A stretch of 36,186 nucleotides of DNA, taken from assembly GCA_950059285.1 (NCBI GenBank), contig CATLTV010000032.1, positions 1 through 36,186 on the forward strand. The letters are read 5' to 3'. The notes beneath the pieces are model-generated. The model was not told the DNA's origin. It was given only the letters and a program-made list of their open reading frames with translations, and did no database searches. The stretch's first letter is position 1; every line of letters begins with the position of its first letter. A program made the position numbers and the translations under genes. This document shows positions 6,832 through 19,892 of the stretch, in pieces. This DNA is from an uncultured Pseudomonadota bacterium (lineage in GTDB: Bacteria; Myxococcota_A; Bradymonadia; Bradymonadales; Bradymonadaceae).

Positions 6832-7956
6832 TTATTTTATGTTTTCAAGCTTCAGTTCAATGCTTGCGCTCTCCTGTAACTTGGCTACATATTGCTCCAG
6901 GGATTGCTGGAATTTCAGCCCTGTGAGCTGGGTCGTGAGGCGCTCCTTGATATCTTCAAATGGAATCGGGCCTTCCTGTTTGTAGTCCACGCGCTTGACG
7001 ATGTGCCAGCCAAACTGTGAGCGGAACGGCTCGGAGACCTCGCCATTTTCAAGTTCAAAGGCGACCTTCTCAAATTCAGGCACCATGGCGTTACGTGGGA
7101 AGAAGCCAAGATCCCCACCCTGAGGTGCGCTGCCATCCTCGGAGTATTCCTTGGCGAGCGCTGCAAAGTCGGCGCCGTCAGCAGTGGTCTTCTTGTGGAC
7201 CTTGGTGATTTCCTTTTTGGCCTTCATCCACGCATCATCGTTGTCGGTCTCCGTGACCTTGATCAGAATATGTCGTGCGTGTACCTGCTCGGGTTGATAG
7301 AACTCCGAGGTGTTCTCATCGTAATAGCTGCGAGCATCGGCTTCAGTGGCATCTTCATACTGATACTCCTTGCGCACCAGCGCCTCAAGCACAAGAGACT
7401 GCTTGATGGACTTCATCAGCTCTTCCTTTGAGATGCCCATCTGCTTTTGCATGTCTTCAATGGTGGTGATTCTTCCCTGACTTGCCATGGAGAGCTCCAT
7501 CTCCATTTGTTGGATACGTGCATCAAGCTGTGGTTGCGTGATCTCAATAGGGTTCTTCTTGATCTCCTGCTCCAACAAACGCTGCACGATCATGCTTTGT
7601 ACAAGTTGCTTCTTGAGTTGTTCGCGTTGCTCGCCCTGAATCTGAGACAGGATGTGGGGTGGAAGCTGGCCATTGTTCACAAGCTTCTGCACCTCTGTAT
7701 CAAATTGTGTGGCAGTGATCGGCTCACTGTTTACGATCGCCACATCGCCCGAGGCCGAGAGGGAGTCAGGCGCGCTGGTCTCGGTATCTGTGTCTGTAGT
7801 CTCGGCGGTGGTCGTGTCTTCAGAGGTGGTGGTGGTAGATCTGTATGCGGGCTGCTCTGTAGGGGCGTCGTCTGGAATATCTGGTGTGGAGTTACACGCA
7901 GCCAGGAGTGCGATAAGCAGTGTGAGAAGAAGTGGTGTGGTTGTATGTTTCATCAT
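6832..7956 (-). CDS. Parvulin-type peptidyl-prolyl isomerase lipoprotein (SurA/PrsA-like)
   Basis: The 374-residue protein has a lipoprotein signal with lipobox LAAC (Cys21), so it should be anchored in the membrane facing the periplasm. After a Thr/Ser/Asp-rich linker (about 30-68) comes a SurA-N-like helical chaperone region (about 70-200) and then one parvulin rotamase domain (about 222-330), with the segments 'HARHILIKV', 'FAALAKEYSED', 'GGDLGFF' and 'FGWHIVKR'. Such proteins help exported and outer-membrane proteins fold by isomerising prolyl bonds. Two adjacent ATGs (7956, 7953) are equally possible starts and neither has a clear Shine-Dalgarno sequence. A stem-loop at 8013-8045 lies upstream. 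Confidence 0.9.
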   Translation of the reverse strand: MMKHTTTPLLLTLLIALLAACNSTPDIPDDAPTEQPAYRSTTTTSEDTTTAETTDTDTETSAPDSLSASGDVAIVNSEPITATQFDTEVQKLVNNGQLPPHILSQIQGEQREQLKKQLVQSMIVQRLLEQEIKKNPIEITQPQLDARIQQMEMELSMASQGRITTIEDMQKQMGISKEELMKSIKQSLVLEALVRKEYQYEDATEADARSYYDENTSEFYQPEQVHARHILIKVTETDNDDAWMKAKKEITKVHKKTTADGADFAALAKEYSEDGSAPQGGDLGFFPRNAMVPEFEKVAFELENGEVSEPFRSQFGWHIVKRVDYKQEGPIPFEDIKERLTTQLTGLKFQQSLEQYVAKLQESASIELKLENIK

Positions 7957-9828: not shown

Positions 9829-11643
9829 TTAAAACTCGAGCGTGGAGATCACCACCGCATCTACAGTGGGAACGTATGGAGATGTCAGTCTGTTTGTGTC
9901 ACAGGACCAGTTGAAGACAGGTTTATATACAGCTCGCACCAGGAAGAACTTGCCATAACTCAGGTCGACAAACTGACCTGGGACAGCGAGGACATTACTC
10001 TGATTGGTGAGCCTCAAATCGACTGGGAGAGAGACTTCACCACAGGTTTCTTGTATTGGCGCACAGCCATCACGTGTCTCGGCCTTCCAATAGATGTCAT
10101 ACACGGATGGAAAGTTTGCGCCCTTGGATAAGATGATCTCACGGATTGAGGTGTGGTTCTCTACTCGAATTGCGATTGAGCTCTCGGTCAGTGTTCTATC
10201 TAAATTTGCGTTGATAAGTCTTATTTGTAAGTTCTGGGTCTCGATTTCTTCGGCCAGAGGTTGAAGCACATCGTAAGGAGCACAGACGGTCCAGTCCGCA
10301 AATGTCGTTTCTCCTTGAGACATTTGAAGTGTGTGACAACCGTCTAGCCCTTGCTCGATTGCATCCAGATTAAACTCTCGTCCAATATCGCGGAAGTCTT
10401 CCCATGCCAGGGCTTCACCCGCGTCAGGCACGCGACAGCGCGCAGGAATGTTTAGTGGCATGCCTCGATCAAGGCTGCTTGAAGGGAAGAACAGGGGGAT
10501 GTCATTGTTGACTGACTCCCAACTGTAGCGTGTGCCTTCGGGGATGCGAGCAGCCTCTTGTTGAGTTTCATCATCCAACTCGATGCACTGGTCCCATTCA
10601 AAGTCTTGCTCAGGGCACACATGTTCTCGCCATGTATGAAGTGTGCTTGTGTCTTCTACATGTGAGTAGTCAGCCTGAATGACAATGGTTTGTGGGGATG
10701 CTTCGATTGATTTGGGGACATCGATGTTGTGATAGTATGTTTTGATATTTGCCCTGCCGTAGAACACGATGATGTCATTTAACGCAGGCGTTGTGACCAT
10801 GAATGCACTGCAACCAGACCATCGCCTGTCTGTGTTGAAGTTATTGAACCATTCGGCAGGGTTTACGGCGAGTTCTTCGCCTGAAAAGAGCGGTATATTG
10901 AACGTGGGTCCTGGGGCTTCAAGGAACAGATCACGCGTGATGATCTCACCTGGGTTTTTGGAGACTTCGTTGCAATTTAACTCAATGTCACTGGAGAGCT
11001 CTTGAATTGTGATCCTGTGCATCTCGTTGCTTTTATTGAGTAATGTGACGCTTCCTGTGAAGGAAGGGGTCCCCTCAAATGGAGCTAGCTCAGGAGGTGT
11101 ACCTGATGCAAGACATGCTGCGGCACCTGCGACAACCAGAGGTTTGTGTGCGTTCACAGGCATGTATGAGGTGCGTGGTGCATGCGATGTGGCGTAATAG
11201 AATCCAGCAAAAAGTGCGGGCAGGCACAGCACATCTGTGGGGTCCGTTGTGGTGTGAAACGGAATCAGCAGCGAGATCAGTTGATCCATCAGGAGTGCGA
11301 CGGGTTCAAACACATTGATTGCGGCAAAGAGCACACCCACACCCGTGGTGAGCAGTGCCAGTGAGCGCACGTTTTTGATGCGAAGCAAGGTTGCTAACAA
11401 GGCAGGCACAATAAACAGCCCCGCAACATCGCTGAGTTTACCCGTCAACAGCCCTGGATACATGGCCTTGAAGACATGATCGTTCAGCACCAACGTGGCC
11501 AGTGCGGCTAGCCAGAGTGGATGACCTAATGTGTGATGTGCAATCTTATGCGTGTTCATTGTGTGTGTCATTCGTATGCTGTCCATGGGCGTAATACGCG
11601 TAGAGGTTTTGCCTGAATCTTCGCTACTGATCGTGTTGAACAT
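9829..11643 (-). CDS. Polytopic membrane protein with large Cys-rich exported domain
   Basis: I do not recognise a named gene. About 604 residues are predicted. The first roughly 180 hold four or five hydrophobic helices; the segment 'HPLWLAALATLVLNDHVFK' followed by 'GLLTGKLSDVAGL' recalls a family of uncharacterised bacterial membrane proteins. The remaining roughly 400 residues are soluble, beta-rich and contain many cysteines, as expected for a disulphide-bonded domain outside the cytoplasm. The start is uncertain: ATG codons at 11643, 11586, 11571 and 11559 are in frame and none has a good ribosome-binding site. Family resemblance begins just after the 11559 ATG, so a shorter protein is quite possible. 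It is followed closely by the VWA lipoprotein gene. Confidence 0.7.
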   Translation of the reverse strand: MFNTISSEDSGKTSTRITPMDSIRMTHTMNTHKIAHHTLGHPLWLAALATLVLNDHVFKAMYPGLLTGKLSDVAGLFIVPALLATLLRIKNVRSLALLTTGVGVLFAAINVFEPVALLMDQLISLLIPFHTTTDPTDVLCLPALFAGFYYATSHAPRTSYMPVNAHKPLVVAGAAACLASGTPPELAPFEGTPSFTGSVTLLNKSNEMHRITIQELSSDIELNCNEVSKNPGEIITRDLFLEAPGPTFNIPLFSGEELAVNPAEWFNNFNTDRRWSGCSAFMVTTPALNDIIVFYGRANIKTYYHNIDVPKSIEASPQTIVIQADYSHVEDTSTLHTWREHVCPEQDFEWDQCIELDDETQQEAARIPEGTRYSWESVNNDIPLFFPSSSLDRGMPLNIPARCRVPDAGEALAWEDFRDIGREFNLDAIEQGLDGCHTLQMSQGETTFADWTVCAPYDVLQPLAEEIETQNLQIRLINANLDRTLTESSIAIRVENHTSIREIILSKGANFPSVYDIYWKAETRDGCAPIQETCGEVSLPVDLRLTNQSNVLAVPGQFVDLSYGKFFLVRAVYKPVFNWSCDTNRLTSPYVPTVDAVVISTLEF

Positions 11644-11725
11644 GAATTTTTCTAGCAACTACACCATAACGCTTCAAGAGTGTTGATGGAATTCTTTGCA
11701 CGCTGTGTGCCATGTGTTTTCAGAA

Positions 11726-11792
11726 GCGTAGCGAGGGCGATGGGGGCGCCTGATTGCGCAGCAATCAGGCGCCCCACTCGCCCTCGCTACGC
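11726..11792. other. Long hairpin in a divergent intergenic region
   Basis: Positions 11726-11757 pair with 11761-11792 over 32 positions with only a 2-nt internal mismatch, around a GCA loop. The membrane-protein gene leaves to the left and the cyclase gene leaves to the right, so no flanking gene ends here and a terminator role is not obvious. The inner core resembles the hairpins at 1-34 and 5501-5562. Confidence 0.7.
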
Positions 11793-11800
11793 GTTCTTTT

Positions 11801-11816
11801 GTGTAAAGATTTACAC
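11801..11816. promoter_or_regulatory. Short inverted repeat, possible operator
   Basis: GTGTAA and TTACAC are separated by 4 nt, about 110 nt before the cyclase start. The symmetry fits a small dimeric regulator site in the promoter region of the lasso-type operon. Nothing else supports it. Confidence 0.25.
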
Positions 11817-11832
11817 GAAAACATGAGCGAGA

Positions 11833-11931
11833 GTGGATATCCTGACCTGTTATGGAGTAAGTCTTCTCCAGATACGGAGTAGAGGTTATCGTAGGTGCCA
11901 GAGTGATGCAAAGTTGAACGGATTGATATGA
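11833..11931 (+). CDS. Possible 32-residue peptide gene before the cyclase
   Basis: A GTG-initiated frame of 32 codons ends with a TGA that overlaps the ATG of the next gene (ATGA), as in coupled genes. The last 15 residues begin with Gly and carry Asp at position 8, the pattern of a lasso core (Gly1-Asp8 ring). A 'YGVSLL' segment has the spacing of the YxxPxL recognition motif, with Ser in place of Pro. Against it: no clear ribosome-binding site, a leader of only 17 residues, and Ser rather than Thr two residues before the core. Such a frame can easily occur by chance, so treat it as a candidate precursor only. Confidence 0.25.
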   Translation: MDILTCYGVSLLQIRSRGYRRCQSDAKLNGLI

Positions 11932-13595
11932 GTATATACAGGCAAATTAAGCCATATTCACGCATCGCGCTTTGTTTGGGTGGGCCGCTTGATACATTGC
12001 AAGTTCCTGACTGGAGCGTCTCCACAGAGGTGGTATGCTCGGGGGCAGGATGCATTTTTTATGAGCATGAAAGCGCTCGCATCGATCCTCTGGAACATGG
12101 ACCTGTCAACGCATCCTTGTGGGTTGAACACTCGCCTTCTTCGGTTGTCATCTGGAGGGACGCTCCTGGACTTGGCCTGATGTGGTATGCACAGTCAGGA
12201 TCACGCATTGTCTGTAGTAATGATATGATCTGGTTGTGTAAGCAGCTTGAGTGCATCACGCCAAATGCGACACGACTGGCCAGAGTCAGCGCGGGTCTTG
12301 ATCCTTATGACCAGACCACAGAGGGCTACATCCAGGGAGTTCATCGCATACGTCCTGGCCACAAGCTCATGATGTGGCGAAACGGAACCTGTGAGCAATA
12401 TGACTGGTGGCGCGAGAAAGTTCAGCTTTATCAGGGGATCGATCCTGAGGGTGAACAATTTATCGAGCGCCTTGATGACGCGCTCCTGCTGACACACAGG
12501 CAAGGTCGAGCAGGGCTTGCTGTGAGCAGTGGTCTTGATTCGACCTTGCTCGCTGCGCGTGCTCAAGCACTGGGGTTGAACCTTGAGTGGGGCAGCATGA
12601 GCTTTCCTCATACGCCCGAGAGCGATGAAACCGCACTCACCATGCAGTGGTCTTCAATGTTTCAGAAGGATGTATGTTTTGTGGACATGACTGCGAGTCT
12701 TCTGTGGCCAGAAGACTGCGCAATGACGGGATGGTCTACAGGTGTGCAGATTCATCCAGGTGAGAGTTACGAGCGCCGTTTTATTCGTGCGTTCGTCGAA
12801 CAACAGGACTTACGCTGGATATACACAGGTGTGGGAGCGGATCAACTCTTTGACGTGCAACCTGTCGAGGTGTTTCGAGAGTATGTACAACATGGAGAGT
12901 GGGCAAAAATAACGCAAGGTAGAAGGCGTACAGATGTGTTTCGTCTTGTGCGGTTGGTTTATGGCTCTGCGCTCTGGCGTTCGCTGATGCCCGACACATT
13001 GAGGCGCTCTCGCCTGCATTCTCAGCTTGTAGAGTGTGCACAACCTCTACTTTCAGAGGTACACCTGGATGAGCTTGTGGAAGGACTTCTGGAGGTAGGT
13101 GAACACAGCGTGTTACAACGTATGTTGTCCTGGAGTTGGGAGAACTTGATGCGATCGCTCTGGCGCTTGAATCAGAGCGCCCGTGCATGTGGTGCAGAGC
13201 TTGTGACACCTTATCTTGATGAGTCGTTGTGGCTCTGGAGGGCTCAACTTTCGGCAAGTGTGTGTATGAACAGATACCATGGCACGCTCTATAACAAGTT
13301 CAAGCTCAGACAAAGTCACCATCAGTTGCATCATGATCAATTTCCTGAAGGGTTTGCCTGGCGAGGAAAGGCTGCGGTGTTTGATGCGCACATTAGCAAA
13401 GCGATGTGTGGAGAGGATCGTATGACGTTAGAGGGGTTGATTCATGGTATGGATGAGGAGTTGCGAGCGCCATCTTGGCAACGGTGGGAGAAGGTCAAGG
13501 ATGGCATGCTCGGGAGAGATCTGGTAGAGCTTTACAGGTTATGTGCTGTGCAGAAATGGAAGCAAACGGTGAGGAGTCAGAATGACAGTGAATAG
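11928..13595 (+). CDS. Asparagine-synthetase-like lasso cyclase (C protein)
   Basis: The 555-residue protein has an N-terminal glutaminase-like fold (about 1-165; 'RIRPGH' at 140-145 is typical) but lacks the Met-Cys start that provides the catalytic Cys in true AsnB. The C-terminal synthetase domain has the ATP-binding PP-loop SSGLDST (200-206) and GVGADQLFD (301-309). In lasso-peptide biosynthesis such proteins adenylate an Asp or Glu side chain of the core so that the N-terminal amine closes a macrolactam. Neighbouring genes for a PqqD-type element and a B2-type protease favour this over asparagine synthesis. Its 3' end overlaps the next gene by 14 nt. The Shine-Dalgarno sequence is weak, so translation may depend on coupling from upstream. 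Confidence 0.85.
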   Translation: MSIYRQIKPYSRIALCLGGPLDTLQVPDWSVSTEVVCSGAGCIFYEHESARIDPLEHGPVNASLWVEHSPSSVVIWRDAPGLGLMWYAQSGSRIVCSNDMIWLCKQLECITPNATRLARVSAGLDPYDQTTEGYIQGVHRIRPGHKLMMWRNGTCEQYDWWREKVQLYQGIDPEGEQFIERLDDALLLTHRQGRAGLAVSSGLDSTLLAARAQALGLNLEWGSMSFPHTPESDETALTMQWSSMFQKDVCFVDMTASLLWPEDCAMTGWSTGVQIHPGESYERRFIRAFVEQQDLRWIYTGVGADQLFDVQPVEVFREYVQHGEWAKITQGRRRTDVFRLVRLVYGSALWRSLMPDTLRRSRLHSQLVECAQPLLSEVHLDELVEGLLEVGEHSVLQRMLSWSWENLMRSLWRLNQSARACGAELVTPYLDESLWLWRAQLSASVCMNRYHGTLYNKFKLRQSHHQLHHDQFPEGFAWRGKAAVFDAHISKAMCGEDRMTLEGLIHGMDEELRAPSWQRWEKVKDGMLGRDLVELYRLCAVQKWKQTVRSQNDSE

Positions 13596-13872
13596 CCCCG
13601 GGGTATTTCAAATAAGAGAGGATCTCCTGATCGAGGAGGTGGATGGGGAGTTTGTAATCCTGGACATGCACCACAATGTATACTTTGGTCTTGAGGCGAT
13701 GGGAAAGCTGATCTGGGAGCTGCTACAGCAAGAGCAAGATGTTGATTCTATTGTGAATACTATCGCAAGTCACTATGGCGTGTCCGAGGATGTCGTACGA
13801 CGTGATGTGATGACTTTTATAGATCAACTTGTGGAGCAGGGGTTGATCACCACCCGTGTGAATAGAGCGTGA
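13582..13872 (+). CDS. PqqD-family RiPP recognition element (B1-type)
   Basis: This 96-residue protein has the PqqD fold pattern: two or three beta strands ('FQIREDLLIEEVDGEFVILDM'-like order) followed by helices with 'MGKLIWELLQ' and a C-terminal winged-helix-like part. In split lasso clusters this B1 protein binds the leader peptide, commonly at a YxxPxL motif, and presents it to the B2 protease and the cyclase. The length is normal for a free-standing element. It overlaps the cyclase gene by 14 nt and the kinase-like gene by 4 nt (GTGA), so all three are translated from one message. Confidence 0.88.
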   Translation: MTVNSPGVFQIREDLLIEEVDGEFVILDMHHNVYFGLEAMGKLIWELLQQEQDVDSIVNTIASHYGVSEDVVRRDVMTFIDQLVEQGLITTRVNRA

Positions 13873-14843
13873 GCGTGCATCACCACTACCTGATCTATGA
13901 TGAGCATGTATGCAGCGATCAACCTCTTGATTATCCGATCTCTGAGGCCGCAGATGATGGGTGTGCCTGGCGATTGTATGAGGGTGATCTCTCTGTATGT
14001 GATGATCTGAACTCCTGGACAAGGATTCATGAGGAGTTTGATTTTGAGGGTGGGCCATGCCTTATGATCTACGAGGATCAACACGATCCCACTTCAAGTC
14101 TCATCTCATATGCAGGTTGGCGAGCTTTAATCAGAGCGCATGAGGTCATCTACACCTATGACAGGACAGCATCGCCTTACGCCATTCCATTTGCCCAGGT
14201 CATTGAGCGCGTGATCGCACCATGGAAAGTGCTCTCACAGCGTGATCACATCCTCGCTGTGCATGGAGGGGCCGTAAGTATGAGTGGTCAGGCATGGATT
14301 TTTATTGGAGAAAGTGGGGTAGGCAAGTCGAGCGCTGCACTGGAGCTTGTGCACAAGGGAATGACGCTCTTGAGTGATGACATGGCTCTTGTCGATGTTG
14401 AGCATATGTGTGTGTTGCCTGGTCCATGGGTTGTAAGGATGTGGGGATCTTCACACGTTGATGGTACGAGCGATGGTGGAGCTGTGGTGGGTACACAGGG
14501 CCAAAAACGACGAGTTTTGGTTGCTCGTGTGCACACTCCGAGCGTGCAGGTTCAGAAGAATGAGCTTCAAGCGATCTTTGTGTTGGAACGTGTGCACGAA
14601 GGTTCACCCGAGGGCAAGTTTCATGAGATGCGCGGGGCAAAAGGGTTGATCAAGGTGTTGGGGCAGTGTTTTGACTTGAGTCATCCTTCACCCATGTGGT
14701 CACGGCGAAGGCTTACGCTTGCGCGTCGCATGTGTGATGAACTGCAAGGGATAAGTGTGTGTTCCTATGGAGAAAGTCCTGATGGCAGGCCAGCACATGT
14801 GGAGGGGTTGTGGCATCAGATCACACAACGCGAGGGACAGTAA
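13869..14843 (+). CDS. HPr kinase-like protein of the lasso cluster
   Basis: The 324-residue protein carries a HprK-type nucleotide-binding core: 'HGGAV' at 132-136, Walker A GESGVGKSS (147-155) and an Asp pair 'LLSDDM' (168-172), the order seen in HPr serine kinases. The region before residue 110 is specific to this subfamily. In some lasso clusters a homologous kinase phosphorylates the precursor peptide, often at a C-terminal Ser; that role is an inference here. No C-terminal HprK signature for HPr binding is evident. The start is GTG, overlapping the preceding stop. The next gene begins 34 nt before this one ends. Confidence 0.82.
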   Translation: MSVHHHYLIYDEHVCSDQPLDYPISEAADDGCAWRLYEGDLSVCDDLNSWTRIHEEFDFEGGPCLMIYEDQHDPTSSLISYAGWRALIRAHEVIYTYDRTASPYAIPFAQVIERVIAPWKVLSQRDHILAVHGGAVSMSGQAWIFIGESGVGKSSAALELVHKGMTLLSDDMALVDVEHMCVLPGPWVVRMWGSSHVDGTSDGGAVVGTQGQKRRVLVARVHTPSVQVQKNELQAIFVLERVHEGSPEGKFHEMRGAKGLIKVLGQCFDLSHPSPMWSRRRLTLARRMCDELQGISVCSYGESPDGRPAHVEGLWHQITQREGQ

Positions 14844-15232
14844 GCGAGAACATCGAGATGTTGTTGTGGCTTGGTGCCGCATATCTGTTCACACGCAAGC
14901 TTACACCAGAGCAGATCACCTTGTGGTCGGCAAGGAGTGCAGCGTGGTTAAACAATGGTGGGTCAATCAGTTCATCAAGTGCTCCTGATGTGTGCGATTT
15001 GGCTGCATGTCTGGCGCTACGTTGGAGTCGAGTGATTCATGGGGATTGTTATGATCGCGCAGTTGCAATGCGTTGGTGGTGTGCGAGGCGAGGTCTTGAT
15101 CTACAGGTTGTGCTCGGCATTCGACGAGGTGCACGGGGTGATGTGGAAGGGCATGCCTGGGTAGAGGACATGCAGGGGGAGCTGTATCTGGTACAGCAAG
15201 ATGCAGGATATCAGGAGGTCACACGTGGTTAG
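14810..15232 (+). CDS. Lasso peptide B2 protease (McjB C-terminal type)
   Basis: The 140-residue protein has the transglutaminase-like fold of McjB/B2 proteases: catalytic Cys80 in 'HGDCYDRAVAMRWW', then 'RRGLDLQVVLGIRRG', His115 in 'GHAWVE' and a following Asp as the likely third residue. These enzymes remove the leader of a lasso precursor together with the PqqD-type partner. The GTG start at 14810 follows a GGAGGGG sequence by only a few bases. Translation from an internal ATG near 14861 is possible but would trim the N-terminal helix. The length is usual for B2 when B1 is a separate gene, as here. Confidence 0.88.
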   Translation: MASDHTTRGTVSENIEMLLWLGAAYLFTRKLTPEQITLWSARSAAWLNNGGSISSSSAPDVCDLAACLALRWSRVIHGDCYDRAVAMRWWCARRGLDLQVVLGIRRGARGDVEGHAWVEDMQGELYLVQQDAGYQEVTRG

Positions 15233-16322
15233 TATGGTTGAGCGCACGCTGGCGTATGCATTGGCAGAGCATCGTGGCGCAGAGGTGATCTGGGAGGATA
15301 GCATTGACCTTGGTATTGAGCCGACACTTTATATGCACAGGGAGTTTCTTGCTCTTGAGGGCAACACAAACTGGAAGATGCATTGGCGCCAGCATATTGC
15401 CGAGACGATGGTCTTACGCCAGGACATGCATGCGATCTATGATCTGTTGTCTGAGCATGTAGGACGAGTCCTGATCCTCAAAGGCGAGCCCATGGCGGTC
15501 CAGTTATACGACAACAGCTATGCTCGCCGATCGGGAGACGTTGATGTTTTATGTGCTCCAGAGGACGTGGAGCGTATATGGCATGTGTTGACCGAGAGAG
15601 GCTACAGGGGGTTATACGATGAGAAGCCAAGGCCATGGTTGTACAACCAATGGGCGGTTGCACAGGGGCAAGGTCAGCGCGTCATTGAGGTGCACTGGAA
15701 GCTGAGCGCCCCCGAGATTGGTGAACCGTCTTTTGATGATCTGTATAACAGGAGTGAGACACTGGATGTTGGTGGGCGTGATGTGCGCGTGTTGTGTCCT
15801 GGAGATCAGCTCTTACAGGTTTGTTATCACTTTCATCATCACATGGGTTTTTTCAAGGGTTTGATCGATGTGGCCGCGTGGTGGGATCGGTTTGGAGATC
15901 GGCCAGAGGTGTTACGCGAGGTGTTTGAGCGAGCCAGTGAGCATGGTGTGTTGAGGATTGTGCACTGGCCTCTTGATGTGCTTGATCGGATCTCGGGCGG
16001 AGAGATTTGGCGAGGAGATCGCCCTGTGAATTTGGCGAGCTTGTATGGGGCATGGACTACGCGATGTGTGTCAGGTGTGTTGGGGGAAGGGGTTGATGTG
16101 AAGTCGTTGGATTTCAAGACCTTTGGGGTGAGCCAGGAAGAGGTCTTGGCGTGGCGATTGTTAGGTTTGATGTTGGTGGATGGGGGGTGGTCGAAGGCGG
16201 CAACGGTTGTGTTTCGGAGTCCCGAGATGATGCGAATGGAGAGGGGAGGAGAGCGTGTACAGATGGAGGATTGGCGAAGGTGGGGGCAAAGGATCCTGAG
16301 TGGAGGAGAGCGAAGAAAGTAA
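15225..16322 (+). CDS. Nucleotidyltransferase-fold protein of the lasso cluster
   Basis: The protein of about 365 residues belongs to the NTP_transf_5-like group. 'LILKGEPMAVQLY' is followed by 'RRSGDVDVL', the GS-DxD signature of the polymerase-beta nucleotidyltransferase fold. Its job in lasso clusters is not established; nucleotide transfer to the peptide or to a partner is conceivable. I chose the GTG at 15225 because a perfect AGGAGG (15213-15218) lies 6 nt upstream. The in-frame ATG at 15201 has no ribosome-binding site and the ATG at 15234 is spaced worse. It is the last gene of the operon and overlaps the B2 gene by 8 nt. Confidence 0.82.
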   Translation: MVSMVERTLAYALAEHRGAEVIWEDSIDLGIEPTLYMHREFLALEGNTNWKMHWRQHIAETMVLRQDMHAIYDLLSEHVGRVLILKGEPMAVQLYDNSYARRSGDVDVLCAPEDVERIWHVLTERGYRGLYDEKPRPWLYNQWAVAQGQGQRVIEVHWKLSAPEIGEPSFDDLYNRSETLDVGGRDVRVLCPGDQLLQVCYHFHHHMGFFKGLIDVAAWWDRFGDRPEVLREVFERASEHGVLRIVHWPLDVLDRISGGEIWRGDRPVNLASLYGAWTTRCVSGVLGEGVDVKSLDFKTFGVSQEEVLAWRLLGLMLVDGGWSKAATVVFRSPEMMRMERGGERVQMEDWRRWGQRILSGGERRK

Positions 16323-16341
16323 ACATCTGGTGATGATCGCT

Positions 16342-16369
16342 TGACATGATACAAAACCTTCTTATAATG
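16342..16369 (+). promoter_or_regulatory. Strong sigma-70-type promoter of the str operon
   Basis: A consensus TTGACA (16342-16347) and consensus TATAAT (16364-16369) are separated by 16 nt. Transcription should start near 16376, giving a leader of about 220 nt before rpsL. It lies 20 nt after the lasso operon ends, with no clear terminator between, so read-through from that operon is possible. Confidence 0.8.
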
Positions 16370-16376
16370 CCGCCTC

Positions 16377-16417
16377 TTGAACCCCCAAGGCGTCGGCTCG
16401 CCAAGTCAGGGGTCAAG
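16377..16417 (+). promoter_or_regulatory. 5'-terminal hairpin of the str leader
   Basis: CTTGACCCC (16377-16385) pairs perfectly with GGGGTCAAG (16409-16417), with an inner GGCG/CGCC helix. It starts at the predicted transcription start, so the mRNA would begin with this hairpin. It may protect the 5' end or be a protein-binding site. A T6 run follows at 16455-16460 without a convincing terminator stem. Confidence 0.5.
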
Positions 16418-16597
16418 TTGTAAAGATATAAGCTATGTAAGTGCACTTGCTGCCTTTTTTGAAGCTCCAACGACCCGGCGATGTTGGGAGTAGACACGAT
16501 AATGTGTTGTGAAAAGGTAAGGGCAAGGGATTTTGAGCGTGTGTTTTAATTCATAAAGCACATGATGATTGAATATACAGGCAACCAGGTTAACGAG

Positions 16598-16969
16598 ATG
16601 CCAACAATTAACCAGCTCGTCCGCAAAGGGCGTAAACAAATCAAGAAGAAGACCACAGCCCCTGCACTCAAGGGCTGCCCACAGAAACGCGGCGTGTGCA
16701 CACGCGTGTACACCACAACCCCAAAGAAGCCTAACTCAGCGCTTCGTAAGGTTGCTCGTGTTCGCTTGACCAACCAGATGGAAGTGACCAGCTACATTCC
16801 TGGTGAGGGACACAACCTCCAGGAGCACAGTGTGGTTCTCATCCGCGGCGGTCGTGTGAAAGACCTTCCCGGTGTGCGTTACCACATCATTCGCGGCACA
16901 TTGGATGCTGTGGGTGTTCAGGAGCGTCGTCAGGGTCGCAGCAAGTACGGCACCAAGCGTCCTCGCTAA
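16598..16969 (+). CDS. rpsL: 30S ribosomal protein S12
   Basis: S12 (123 residues) sits at the decoding centre of the small subunit. The canonical [12 protein letters not shown] start, TPKKPNSA loop (Lys43) and [10 protein letters not shown] loop (Lys88) are present, so no classical streptomycin-resistance substitution is seen. The start at 16598 gives the normal S12 N-terminus; an in-frame ATG 36 nt upstream would add residues foreign to the family. An AGG lies about 8 nt upstream. It is the first gene after the strong promoter and long structured leader. Confidence 0.97.
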
Positions 16970-17021
16970 GTCCGTGCCACACGCGTTGTGGTTAGAAGGT
17001 TTTGATAAACATATAAAGCGA

Positions 17022-17043
17022 CAAGGGAAGGTGACTTCCCTTG
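17022..17043 (+). promoter_or_regulatory. Hairpin before rpsG
   Basis: A perfect 9-bp stem (17022-17030 with 17035-17043) closes a GTGA loop of the GNRA class, about 15 nt ahead of the rpsG ribosome-binding site. No T-tract follows, so it is not a terminator. It may act in translation control or mRNA processing. Confidence 0.5.
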
Positions 17044-17069
17044 AGCTAGCAATACGATAAGGAAATAAG

Positions 17070-17540
17070 ATGCCTAGAAGAAGGGAAGTGCCAAAGCGCC
17101 CTATATTGCCAGATCCCAAGTACAAAGAAGAGTTGATCACACAGTTTGTGAACGCCATGATGTACGACGGCAAGAAATCCACCAGCGAGCAGATCTTGTA
17201 CGATACCCTTGACGCCATGGAAGGAACAGGCGACGAGGAGTCCGTGAAGATGTTCAAGCGCGCGGTTGAAAATGTCCGCCCTGTGGTTGAGGTTCGTTCT
17301 CGCCGCGTTGGTGGTTCAACCTACCAGGTTCCTGTTGAAGTTCGTCCCGAGCGCCGTACAGCACTCGCAATCCGCTGGATCCTTGCTGCTGCTCGTAAGC
17401 GCGGTGAGAAGACCATGGTTGAGCGTTTGACCGCTGAGCTTCTTGACGCAGCCAACAACCGTGGCAGCGCAGTCCGTAAGAAGGACGAAACACACCGCAT
17501 GGCAGAAGCAAACAAAGCGTTTGCTCACTACCGCTGGTAA
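17070..17540 (+). CDS. rpsG: 30S ribosomal protein S7
   Basis: S7 (156 residues) starts assembly of the 30S head and contacts 16S rRNA and the E-site tRNA. The family start [10 protein letters not shown], the '[20 protein letters not shown]' region and the C-terminal '[17 protein letters not shown]' are present and the length is standard. An AAGGAAA precedes the ATG. In enterobacteria S7 represses the str operon by binding between S12 and S7; the hairpin at 17022-17043 occupies that position here, though no direct similarity is claimed. Confidence 0.97.
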
Positions 17541-17593
17541 TTTAGCATAGTGGGTCGTGCCTTTTCACAAGGTGCGACCCATGCATAAAAGAG

Positions 17594-17665
17594 AACCGTC
17601 CGGGTGACGCAGGTTCATGGCTTCCATGTGAGGCAGTGAGCTGGAGTTACCAAGGCGGTTTTTTT
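17594..17665 (+). promoter_or_regulatory. Three-helix element with T-tract before fusA
   Basis: Three nested helices can be drawn: AACCG/CGGTT (17594-17598 with 17656-17660), GGTGAC/GTTACC (17603-17608 with 17646-17651) and CATGG/CCATG (17616-17620 with 17624-17628). Seven T residues (17659-17665) follow the outer helix, as in an intrinsic terminator or attenuator. It lies between the rpsG stop and the fusA start. A weaker hairpin occupies 17551-17580. Confidence 0.5.
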
Positions 17666-17747
17666 AATAGTTTTACACATAGTTTGTGAATTTTCTTGGA
17701 TCAAGAGCGCATGAGAGCGCTGGGTGACGTCAGACGGAGGTGGTGTT

Positions 17748-19892
17748 ATGGCCCGCAAGACAGCATTGGAAAACGTGAGAAACATAGGGATTATGGCTCA
17801 TATTGATGCCGGTAAGACCACAACCACGGAGCGAATCCTTTATTACACAGGAAAGTCGCACAAGATCGGTGAAGTGCATGATGGTGCCACCGAGATGGAC
17901 TGGATGGAGCAGGAGCGTGAGCGTGGGATCACGATCACAAGCGCTGCGACCACGTGTTACTGGAAGCTTGATAAAGAGACGTTGCGCATCAACATCATTG
18001 ATACGCCTGGTCACGTGGACTTCACCATGGAAGTGGAGCGATCCCTGCGTGTGCTTGATGGAGCGATCGCTGTGTTTGATGCGGTTGCAGGTGTGGAGCC
18101 ACAGAGTGAGACTGTGTGGCGTCAGGCCAACCGTTACCATGTCCCCAGGATGGCGTTCGTCAACAAGATGGATCGTGTGGGCGCAGACTTCGACATGACC
18201 ATCGACATGATGCATGGGCGTCTCAAGGCAAATGCCGTGAGAATTCAGCTGCCCATTGGTGCAGAGGATCGCTTTGCAGGTGTTGTGGATTTGATCGAAA
18301 TGGATGCGATCATCTGGCATGAAGAGACACTTGGGGCATCTTTTGATCGCGTCGAGATTCCTGATGACTTGAAGGATGAGGCAGAGCTTGCCAGAGAGCA
18401 AATCATTGAAGCTGTGGCGGATTATGATGAGGAGCTGATGATGAAGTTCCTTGAGGGAGAGGAGATCTCTGCCGAGGAGCTTCATGCTGCGGTCAGGACC
18501 GCAACGTTGGGATTCCATATTGTCCCCGTATTATGTGGTTCAGCGTTCAAGAACAAGGGTGTTCAGCCCTTGCTTGATGCGGTCGTGCGCTATTTGCCAT
18601 CTCCTGTCGATGTGCCCGATGTGGAGGGTGTTGATCCCAAGGCGTTTGCAAAGAGCGTGGAGAACAAGACCGAGCTTACTGATGAGGACAAGCGCTACAG
18701 GAAGCCATCTGACAAGGAGCCGTTTGCTGCGCTTGCGTTCAAGATTATGAACACCCAGCACATGGGGCCGTTGACCTTCTTCAGGGTTTACTCGGGTCAG
18801 ATCGAGTCAGGAAAGCATGTATACAATGTGACCAAGAACAAGCGTGAGCGCATGGGTCGTATTGTGCTGATGCATGCAAACAAGATGGAAGAGCTTGATG
18901 CTGTGTATGCGGGTGAGATCGCTGCTGTGGTTGGGTTAAGGAACACCACCACAGGTGATACGCTGAGTGATCAGCAGGCCCCAATTATTCTTGAAGCGAT
19001 GGACTTCCCTGATCCTGTGATTCAGATTGCAATCGAGCCTTTGACGCAGGCAGATCAGGCGAAGTTGTCAGAGAGCTTACAGAAGTTGGCTGTGGAAGAT
19101 CCAAGTTTCCAGGTGAACGTCAACGAGGAGAGTGGTCAGACGATCATCGCAGGTCAGGGTGAGCTTCACCTGGAGATTATTGTCGATCGCCTGCTTCGCG
19201 AGTTCAAGGTTGAGGCCAGGGTTGGTGATCCCGAGGTGGCGTACAGGGAGACTGTGCGTGAGAAGGTTGAGCATCGTGAGGTGTTTGAGCGCCAGACTGG
19301 TGGCAAGGGAATGTTTGCGGATGTGAAGTTGCGCGTGGAGCCTCTTGAGCGAGGCAAGGGCGTGGAGTTCGTTGAAGAGATCAAGGGTGGTGTGATTCCC
19401 AAGGAGTTCTTCAGCGCCATTGAGAAGGGGGTTCGCGAGGCCGCTGAAGGTGGTATTCTCGTGGGTTATCCTGTGCTGGATGTGAAGGTGACATTGCTTG
19501 ATGGATCGGCGCACGATGTGGATTCCAATGAGATGGCGTTCAAGGTGTGTGCATCCATGGCGTTCAGGCAGGCTGTGATGGCAGCGCGTCCGATGGTGCT
19601 GGAGCCGATGATGGATGTTGAGGTTGTGACGCCTGATGTGTTCATGGGCGACGTGATCGGAGACATTAACAGCCGCAGGGGCAGTGTGCAGGGCATGACC
19701 CAGCGCGGAGATGCTCAGGTAATCAAGGCGAAGGTGCCGTTGCGCGAAATGTTTGGTTACTCCACAGGCTTGAGGAGTAAGACACAGGGTCGAGCAAGCT
19801 ATTCCATGCACTTTGATGGCTATGAAGCCACACCACAGAACGTGGGGCAGGAGATTGTGCAAAGGATCATGGGACCAAACTTCAAGTATTGA
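17748..19892 (+). CDS. fusA: Translation elongation factor G
   Basis: EF-G (714 residues) is the GTPase that moves tRNAs and mRNA through the ribosome. The GTP-binding motifs are intact: [10 protein letters not shown] (17-26), DTPGH (85-89) and NKMD (139-142). Domains II-V follow in the usual order, including the domain IV stretch '[15 protein letters not shown]'. The ATG at 17748 follows GGAGG by 7 nt and gives the family start [15 protein letters not shown]; reading from 17724 would add 8 foreign residues. It is the last gene of the str operon here, ending at a strong terminator, because no tuf gene follows. Confidence 0.97.

What the first reader, a model, noticed from the sequence alone, without database searches (positions are those of the whole stretch)
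11928..16322. Lasso-peptide-type maturation operon without a visible precursor or exporter
Five overlapping genes encode a cyclase (PP-loop SSGLDST), a PqqD-type recognition element, an HprK-like kinase, a B2 protease (Cys80, His115) and a nucleotidyltransferase-fold protein. Known lasso clusters need a precursor gene and usually an ABC exporter; neither is evident, and the operon sits directly against the ribosomal-protein cluster. The product could be made from an unusual or distant precursor. The kinase and nucleotidyltransferase suggest an additional modification.
Basis: partly seen in the sequence, partly recalled or inferred. Interest (0 to 1): 0.62.

Follow-up and report, generated by a model that had tools for sequence, protein, structure and literature searches.

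The report
Lasso-peptide operon with a remote precursor
This is the enzyme set for making a knotted (lasso) peptide in a Bradymonas-type bacterium; the peptide it works on is not missing but appears to be encoded alone in another part of the genome.

Summary
Window 11928-16322 carries five overlapping genes: lasso cyclase, PqqD-type recognition protein, HprK-like kinase, B2 protease and NTP_transf_5 protein, with no precursor or exporter among them. It belongs to a described kind: the bsf phospho-lasso cluster of Bradymonas sediminis (PMC10368454), order C-A-D-B1-K-B2-N beside ribosomal genes. The window has the same order and the same rpsL-rpsG-fusA neighbour, minus A (precursor) and D (exporter). 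In 14 genomes of this family the operon lies against rpsL; most relatives whose operon is fully covered carry A, and often D, between C and B1. A precursor profile built from relatives finds one match in the window's own genome, on another contig: an 82-aa ORF with Tyr(-17), Pro(-14), Leu(-12), Gly(-8), Ile(-2), Gly1 and ring Asp9, apparently its own transcription unit between dciA and a DEAD-box helicase gene. No exporter of the bsfD clade was found. Relatives show similar dispersal: separate cyclase-precursor pairs beside one B1-K-B2 core. Most likely the operon matures the remote precursor in trans into a phosphorylated lasso peptide. The dispersed layout is new to me; the chemistry is known. 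Product, enzyme-substrate pairing, the N step and export are inferred.

The parts
11928..13595 (+). lasso cyclase (C), asparagine-synthetase-like macrolactam synthetase, 555 aa, SSGLDST PP-loop
   Evidence: PF00733 8e-9; macrolact_Ik_Al 7e-8; 23% identity to BsfC, E 6e-16; only full-length cyclase in the genome
13582..13872 (+). B1, PqqD-type RiPP recognition element, 96 aa
   Evidence: PF05402 1.7e-19, lasso_PqqD_Bac 1.5e-17; 38% identity to BsfB1
13869..14843 (+). K, HprK-like precursor kinase, 324 aa
   Evidence: PF07475; 28% identity to BsfK; all eight reported BsfK residues kept
14810..15232 (+). B2, leader peptidase, 140 aa, Cys80 and His115
   Evidence: PF13471, lasso_biosyn_B2 above cut-off; 35% identity to BsfB2; only copy in the genome
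15201..16322 (+). N, NTP_transf_5 nucleotidyltransferase-fold protein, 373 aa, RRSGDVDVL motif
   Evidence: PF14907 3.8e-33; 32% identity to BsfN
11659..11927 (.). divergent intergenic region upstream of the operon; holds no precursor but a long near-perfect hairpin at about 11722-11797
   Evidence: z -11.4
16341..16368 (+). consensus promoter TTGACA-N16-TATAAT between the N gene and rpsL, probably the promoter of the ribosomal operon
   Evidence: 12 of 12 matches
16562..19892 (+). conserved neighbour rpsL-rpsG-fusA (not part of the pathway); the operon is next to it in 14 genomes of the family

Best explanation
The five genes are a bsf-type phospho-lasso operon (C-B1-K-B2-N) that lost its precursor (A) and exporter (D) genes from the usual place between C and B1. 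Its substrate is most likely the 82-aa ORF on contig C70 of the same genome (L095 7319-7567), apparently its own transcription unit. Proposed steps: B1 binds the leader (YTAPELITYGPLRQMIR); K, helped by B1, phosphorylates a hydroxyl in the ring segment (Ser4 is the nearest equivalent of BsfA Ser3); B2 cuts after Ile(-2)-Arg(-1); C closes Gly1 onto Asp9 around the tail; N may modify the phosphate further. Shown by sequence: gene identities, intact catalytic residues, shared synteny, one precursor with the exact leader spacing. Shown in the literature for Bsf: K, B1 and B2 activities. Inferred: that these enzymes act on the C70 peptide in trans, ring size, phosphosite, the N step and the export route.
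For: Same gene order and same rpsL neighbour as bsf, whose precursor is identical in L052. The window B1, K, B2, N and C match the Bsf proteins at 38, 28, 35, 32 and 23% identity. All eight BsfK residues are kept. The precursor profile gives one own-genome match, E 4.1e-5, and 1.9e-4 with a second profile from 30 sequences that exclude it; next best is 0.8. The grammar Y..P.[LIV]...G.....[IVT].G.{6,7}[DE] gives no match in 24 Mb of random sequence, and in about 1.08 Mb of held loci essentially every match is a lasso-type precursor. Independent weak match to NCBIfam lasso_cyano, E 0.004. A strong hairpin followed by T-rich sequence lies just after the ORF. B2 and the cyclase are single copy in the genome. 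Unlinked C-A pairs in relatives have no B1, K or B2 nearby, so trans action is already needed there.
Against: No expression, binding or product data. The C70 core would be 46 aa with two Cys, longer than the lasso cores in this set. Its ring would be 9 residues (Asp9) and its Ser is at 4, not 3. The genome is a draft (441 contigs, 95% complete), so a nearer second precursor could be missed. Contig gaps hide the true distance; at least about 19 kb.
Confidence: 0.8

Rival explanations
1. The operon is a decaying remnant: A and D are gone and the remaining enzymes no longer make anything.
For: A and D are absent from the locus, and no bsfD-clade transporter is found in the genome.
Against: All five frames are open and overlapping, with catalytic residues of all enzymes intact. 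The C70 precursor keeps the exact leader grammar. Some working-looking relatives also lack D (L049, L050; the paper's mmv) or have A elsewhere.
Confidence: 0.1
2. The operon has another, undetected precursor (one or more) and the C70 ORF is a coincidence or is processed by nothing.
For: The C70 core is unusually long and departs from Asp8 and Ser3; draft genome with 441 contigs.
Against: Two profiles find nothing else in the genome at E below 0.8; chance of the grammar is negligible.
Confidence: 0.08
3. The operon makes a non-lasso product, for instance the cyclase and kinase act on a carrier protein or polysaccharide as in HprK-rel-A type cassettes.
For: The kinase also hits NCBIfam HprK_rel_A (E 1e-14, far below its cut-off) and B1 weakly hits PqqD_rel_X.
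Against: B2 and B1 hit lasso models better, and every fully covered family operon found has lasso-type precursors in or near it, or elsewhere in the genome; BsfK, BsfB1 and BsfB2 act on a lasso precursor (PMC10368454).
Confidence: 0.02

Closest known systems
bsf lasso cluster, Bradymonas sediminis FA350 (Duan et al. 2023, PMC10368454)
   Same: Same C, B1, K, B2, N genes in the same order; ribosomal genes at the same end; Ile(-2) leader with Y(-17), P(-14), L(-12); kinase residues identical.
   Different: Window lacks A and D in the operon; putative precursor on another contig with Asp9 and Ser4 instead of Asp8 and Ser3, and a 46-aa core; proteins only 23-38% identical.
mmv cluster, Microvenator marinus (same paper)
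   Same: No exporter gene in the cluster.
   Different: According to the paper it has a precursor and lacks only D.
Pseudomycoidin cluster, Bacillus pseudomycoides (reviewed in PMC9266682)
   Same: Kinase plus annotated nucleotidyltransferase beside lasso enzymes; there K phosphorylates and N is needed for hexose on the phosphate.
   Different: Phosphorylation at the C-terminal Ser and not in the ring; Thr(-2) type leader is the rule in such clusters; homology of PsmN with the window N gene was not tested here.

Membership tests
bsf-type phospho-lasso clusters of Bradymonadales | C, B1, K, B2 (and often N) genes with intact catalytic residues, in this order | tested here: met
bsf-type phospho-lasso clusters of Bradymonadales | precursor gene within the cluster | tested here: not met
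   no leader motif in flanks or gaps; the only genome match is on contig C70
bsf-type phospho-lasso clusters of Bradymonadales | precursor with Y(-17), P(-14), L(-12), Ile(-2), Gly1 | tested here: met
   C70 ORF YTAPELITYGPLRQMIR-G
bsf-type phospho-lasso clusters of Bradymonadales | Asp8 ring residue and Ser/Thr3 phosphosite | tested here: not met
   C70 core GAGSPTRAD has Asp9 and Ser4; several relatives also vary at position 3
bsf-type phospho-lasso clusters of Bradymonadales | ABC exporter D | tested here: not met
   none in operon; none of the seven best own-genome ABC matches falls in the D clade, 100/100 support. Not universal: mmv lacks it
lasso peptide biosynthesis in general | threaded Gly1-Asp/Glu macrolactam product | not testable with these tools
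   needs expression and mass spectrometry
lasso peptide biosynthesis in general | B2 leader peptidase above curated model cut-off | tested here: met
   NF033537 38.6 bits, cut-off 33

The most novel reading that the evidence does not exclude
In this family the lasso pathway is modular and dispersed: one B1-K-B2(-N) core, held beside rpsL-rpsG-fusA, serves precursors encoded in trans, alone (window genome) or with their own extra cyclase (several relatives), including a conserved second core peptide GAS(W/Y)KG(V/I/T)DS found across several genera.
Probability: 0.6. Interest if true: 0.5.

Novelty: new variant of a known kind. Interest (0 to 1): 0.4.

Why it matters
Lasso genome mining commonly looks for precursors next to the enzymes. 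Here the enzymes are intact and the precursor is remote, so such searches would call the operon orphan and would miss both this peptide and the unlinked cyclase-precursor pairs of relatives. A shared B1-K-B2 core working on several remote precursors would be a natural combinatorial system, testable with purified proteins. The steady place beside the ribosomal str operon in 14 genomes raises the question of growth-linked production.

Tried and rejected
Precursor inside the window: no leader motif in flanking gaps or elsewhere (the DNA pattern hit lies within fusA and is chance). Exporter elsewhere in the genome: 40 ABC matches, but the seven best lie outside the D clade; the long branches make only their exclusion, not their own places, meaningful. 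A named organism for the window: two genome-contig scans; the single-protein scan found no relative, the second named only related MAGs, 'Myxococcales' CSSed isolates. The HprK alignment was too variable for a collection scan. Viral contigs: none. Solved structures for the N protein by sequence: none. Rfam: none in the window. Literature on trans-encoded lasso precursors: nothing fitting in the searched open-access set, which is not proof of absence.

Full report
Observation. Domain scans give Asn_synthase, PqqD, Hpr_kinase_C, Transglut_core3 / lasso B2 and NTP_transf_5. The cyclase and PqqD genes overlap by 14 nt, so nothing can lie between them. The gaps on either side, 11659-11927 and 16323-16561, contain no ORF with a lasso leader.

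Relatives. The whole-genome search placed homologous cyclases in the same family and B2-type proteins in most of its members. Larger stretches around these show the same operon again and again. Where it is fully covered the usual order is cyclase, short ORF, ABC transporter, PqqD, kinase, B2 and often NTP_transf_5. The short ORFs are lasso precursors: a leader YxxPxL, Gly(-8), Ile or Val(-2), then Gly1 and Asp or Glu at core position 8. In L049 and L050 there is no transporter between, as in the window. In L051 and L054 the precursor stands just before PqqD and the cyclase is elsewhere (L069, L070). In G006 the cyclase and precursor are on one contig and PqqD-kinase-B2-N on another (L071, L055).

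Place in the genome. In 14 genomes of the family (window, L049, L050, L052, L053, L055, L056, L057, L058, L059, L061, L062, L063, L064) the operon lies beside rpsL-rpsG-fusA; in L057 it is in the opposite orientation. The two exceptions, L051 and L054, are one genus; L060 ends before the point. So the position against the ribosomal cluster is an inherited feature. A perfect consensus promoter at 16341-16368 suggests that the ribosomal genes have their own start.

Literature. Duan et al. 2023 (PMC10368454) describe the bsf cluster of Bradymonas sediminis FA350: bsfC, A, D, B1, K, B2, N, bordered by ribosomal proteins. The precursor ORF in L052 translates to the published BsfA, so G008 is that strain or a near-identical one. 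They showed that BsfK phosphorylates Ser3 with help from BsfB1, and that BsfB1 and BsfB2 remove the leader after Ile(-2). The mature lasso peptide was not detected, and the role of BsfN is unknown. The window kinase keeps all eight residues they tested or listed, with a constant offset of 16. In pseudomycoidin, a kinase and an annotated nucleotidyltransferase lead to phosphate and hexose on a C-terminal Ser (PMC9266682).

The missing precursor. A profile from 12 precursors of relatives gives exactly one match in the window's own genome, at C70:7367-7456, E 4.1e-5. A second profile of 30 sequences that excludes this ORF gives E 1.9e-4, next best 0.8. The ORF (L095 7319-7567) reads MVTYMCNDTVPKKQFPEEYTAPELITYGPLRQMIR followed by GAGSPTRADFSSLDSNPNDGVNTCLGDPADDGGELFDSDCNGGYFPF. 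Spacing gives Tyr(-17), Pro(-14), Leu(-12), Gly(-8), Ile(-2), Arg(-1), Gly1 and Asp9. It stands alone between a dciA gene and a DEAD-box helicase gene and is followed by a strong hairpin with a T-rich tail. A regular expression of this grammar had no match in 24 Mb of random sequence, and in the held loci essentially all matches are precursors. The genome has one B2 and one full cyclase, both in the window. The two contigs are separate, so the distance is at least about 19 kb.

The missing exporter. Forty ABC matches exist in the genome. The nine lasso D proteins of relatives form one clade with full support, and none of the seven best own-genome matches falls in it. The published mmv cluster also lacks D. 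How the peptide leaves the cell, if it does, is open.

A wider pattern. Searching 115 related genomes with the precursor profile found further precursors. In several family members these are next to a second cyclase but have no PqqD, kinase or B2 within the few kb fetched (L125-L136). Their cores are alike across genera (GASWKGVDS and variants). In G006 two such pairs exist with one B1-K-B2-N core found. In another family of the class, precursors stand directly before an ABC exporter with no other enzyme near by, while cyclases lie on other contigs. The window's layout is one case of a dispersed pathway.

Mechanism. B1 binds the remote leader; K with B1 phosphorylates the ring segment; B2 cleaves; C closes the ring; N may act on the phosphate. 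Activities of K, B1 and B2 are published for the Bradymonas proteins. For the window they are inferred from 23-38% identity, intact residues, order and synteny. The unusual features of the C70 core, its 46 residues, two Cys, Asp9 and Ser4, are the main reason for caution.

Verdict. A real, ordinary-chemistry lasso operon of a published type, in a new layout: precursor in trans and no recognisable exporter. Interest is moderate, mainly for genome mining and for the possible sharing of one maturation core by several remote precursors.

Noticed in passing
L050 6611-8263 (-) (G004:C77): The precursor motif (YEPPALEYLGELGEVVRG AASDVYD) is in frame with and continuous with the C-terminus of the cyclase: a possible cyclase-precursor fusion, or a precursor started from an internal ATG.
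   Followed up: partly
L125, L126, L127, L128, L129, L131, L133, L134, L135, L136: Second, unlinked cyclase-precursor pairs with a conserved core (GASWKGVDS..., GATSKGVDA...) and no PqqD, kinase or B2 near by.
   Followed up: partly
L137, L138, L139 (another family of the class): Lasso-like precursors (for example YETPKIEYLGVLSALIQG SSGSVRDAF) directly before an ABC exporter, behind a sugar-phosphate nucleotidyltransferase-like gene, with no maturation enzymes near by.
   Followed up: partly
window 11722-11797: Near-perfect hairpin of about 35 bp (z -11.4) between the divergent membrane-protein gene and the cyclase gene; its inner part has weak matches elsewhere in the genome.
   Followed up: partly
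window 9829-11658 (-): Membrane protein without Pfam match; homologues lie near the lasso genes in L050, L053 and directly after the precursor in L071, so it may be a conserved neighbour.
   Followed up: partly
L095 7319-7567, L049 about 7300-7489, L050 C-terminus: Three exporter-less genomes have long cores (28-46 aa) with two Cys in the tail, suggesting a tail disulfide.
   Followed up: no
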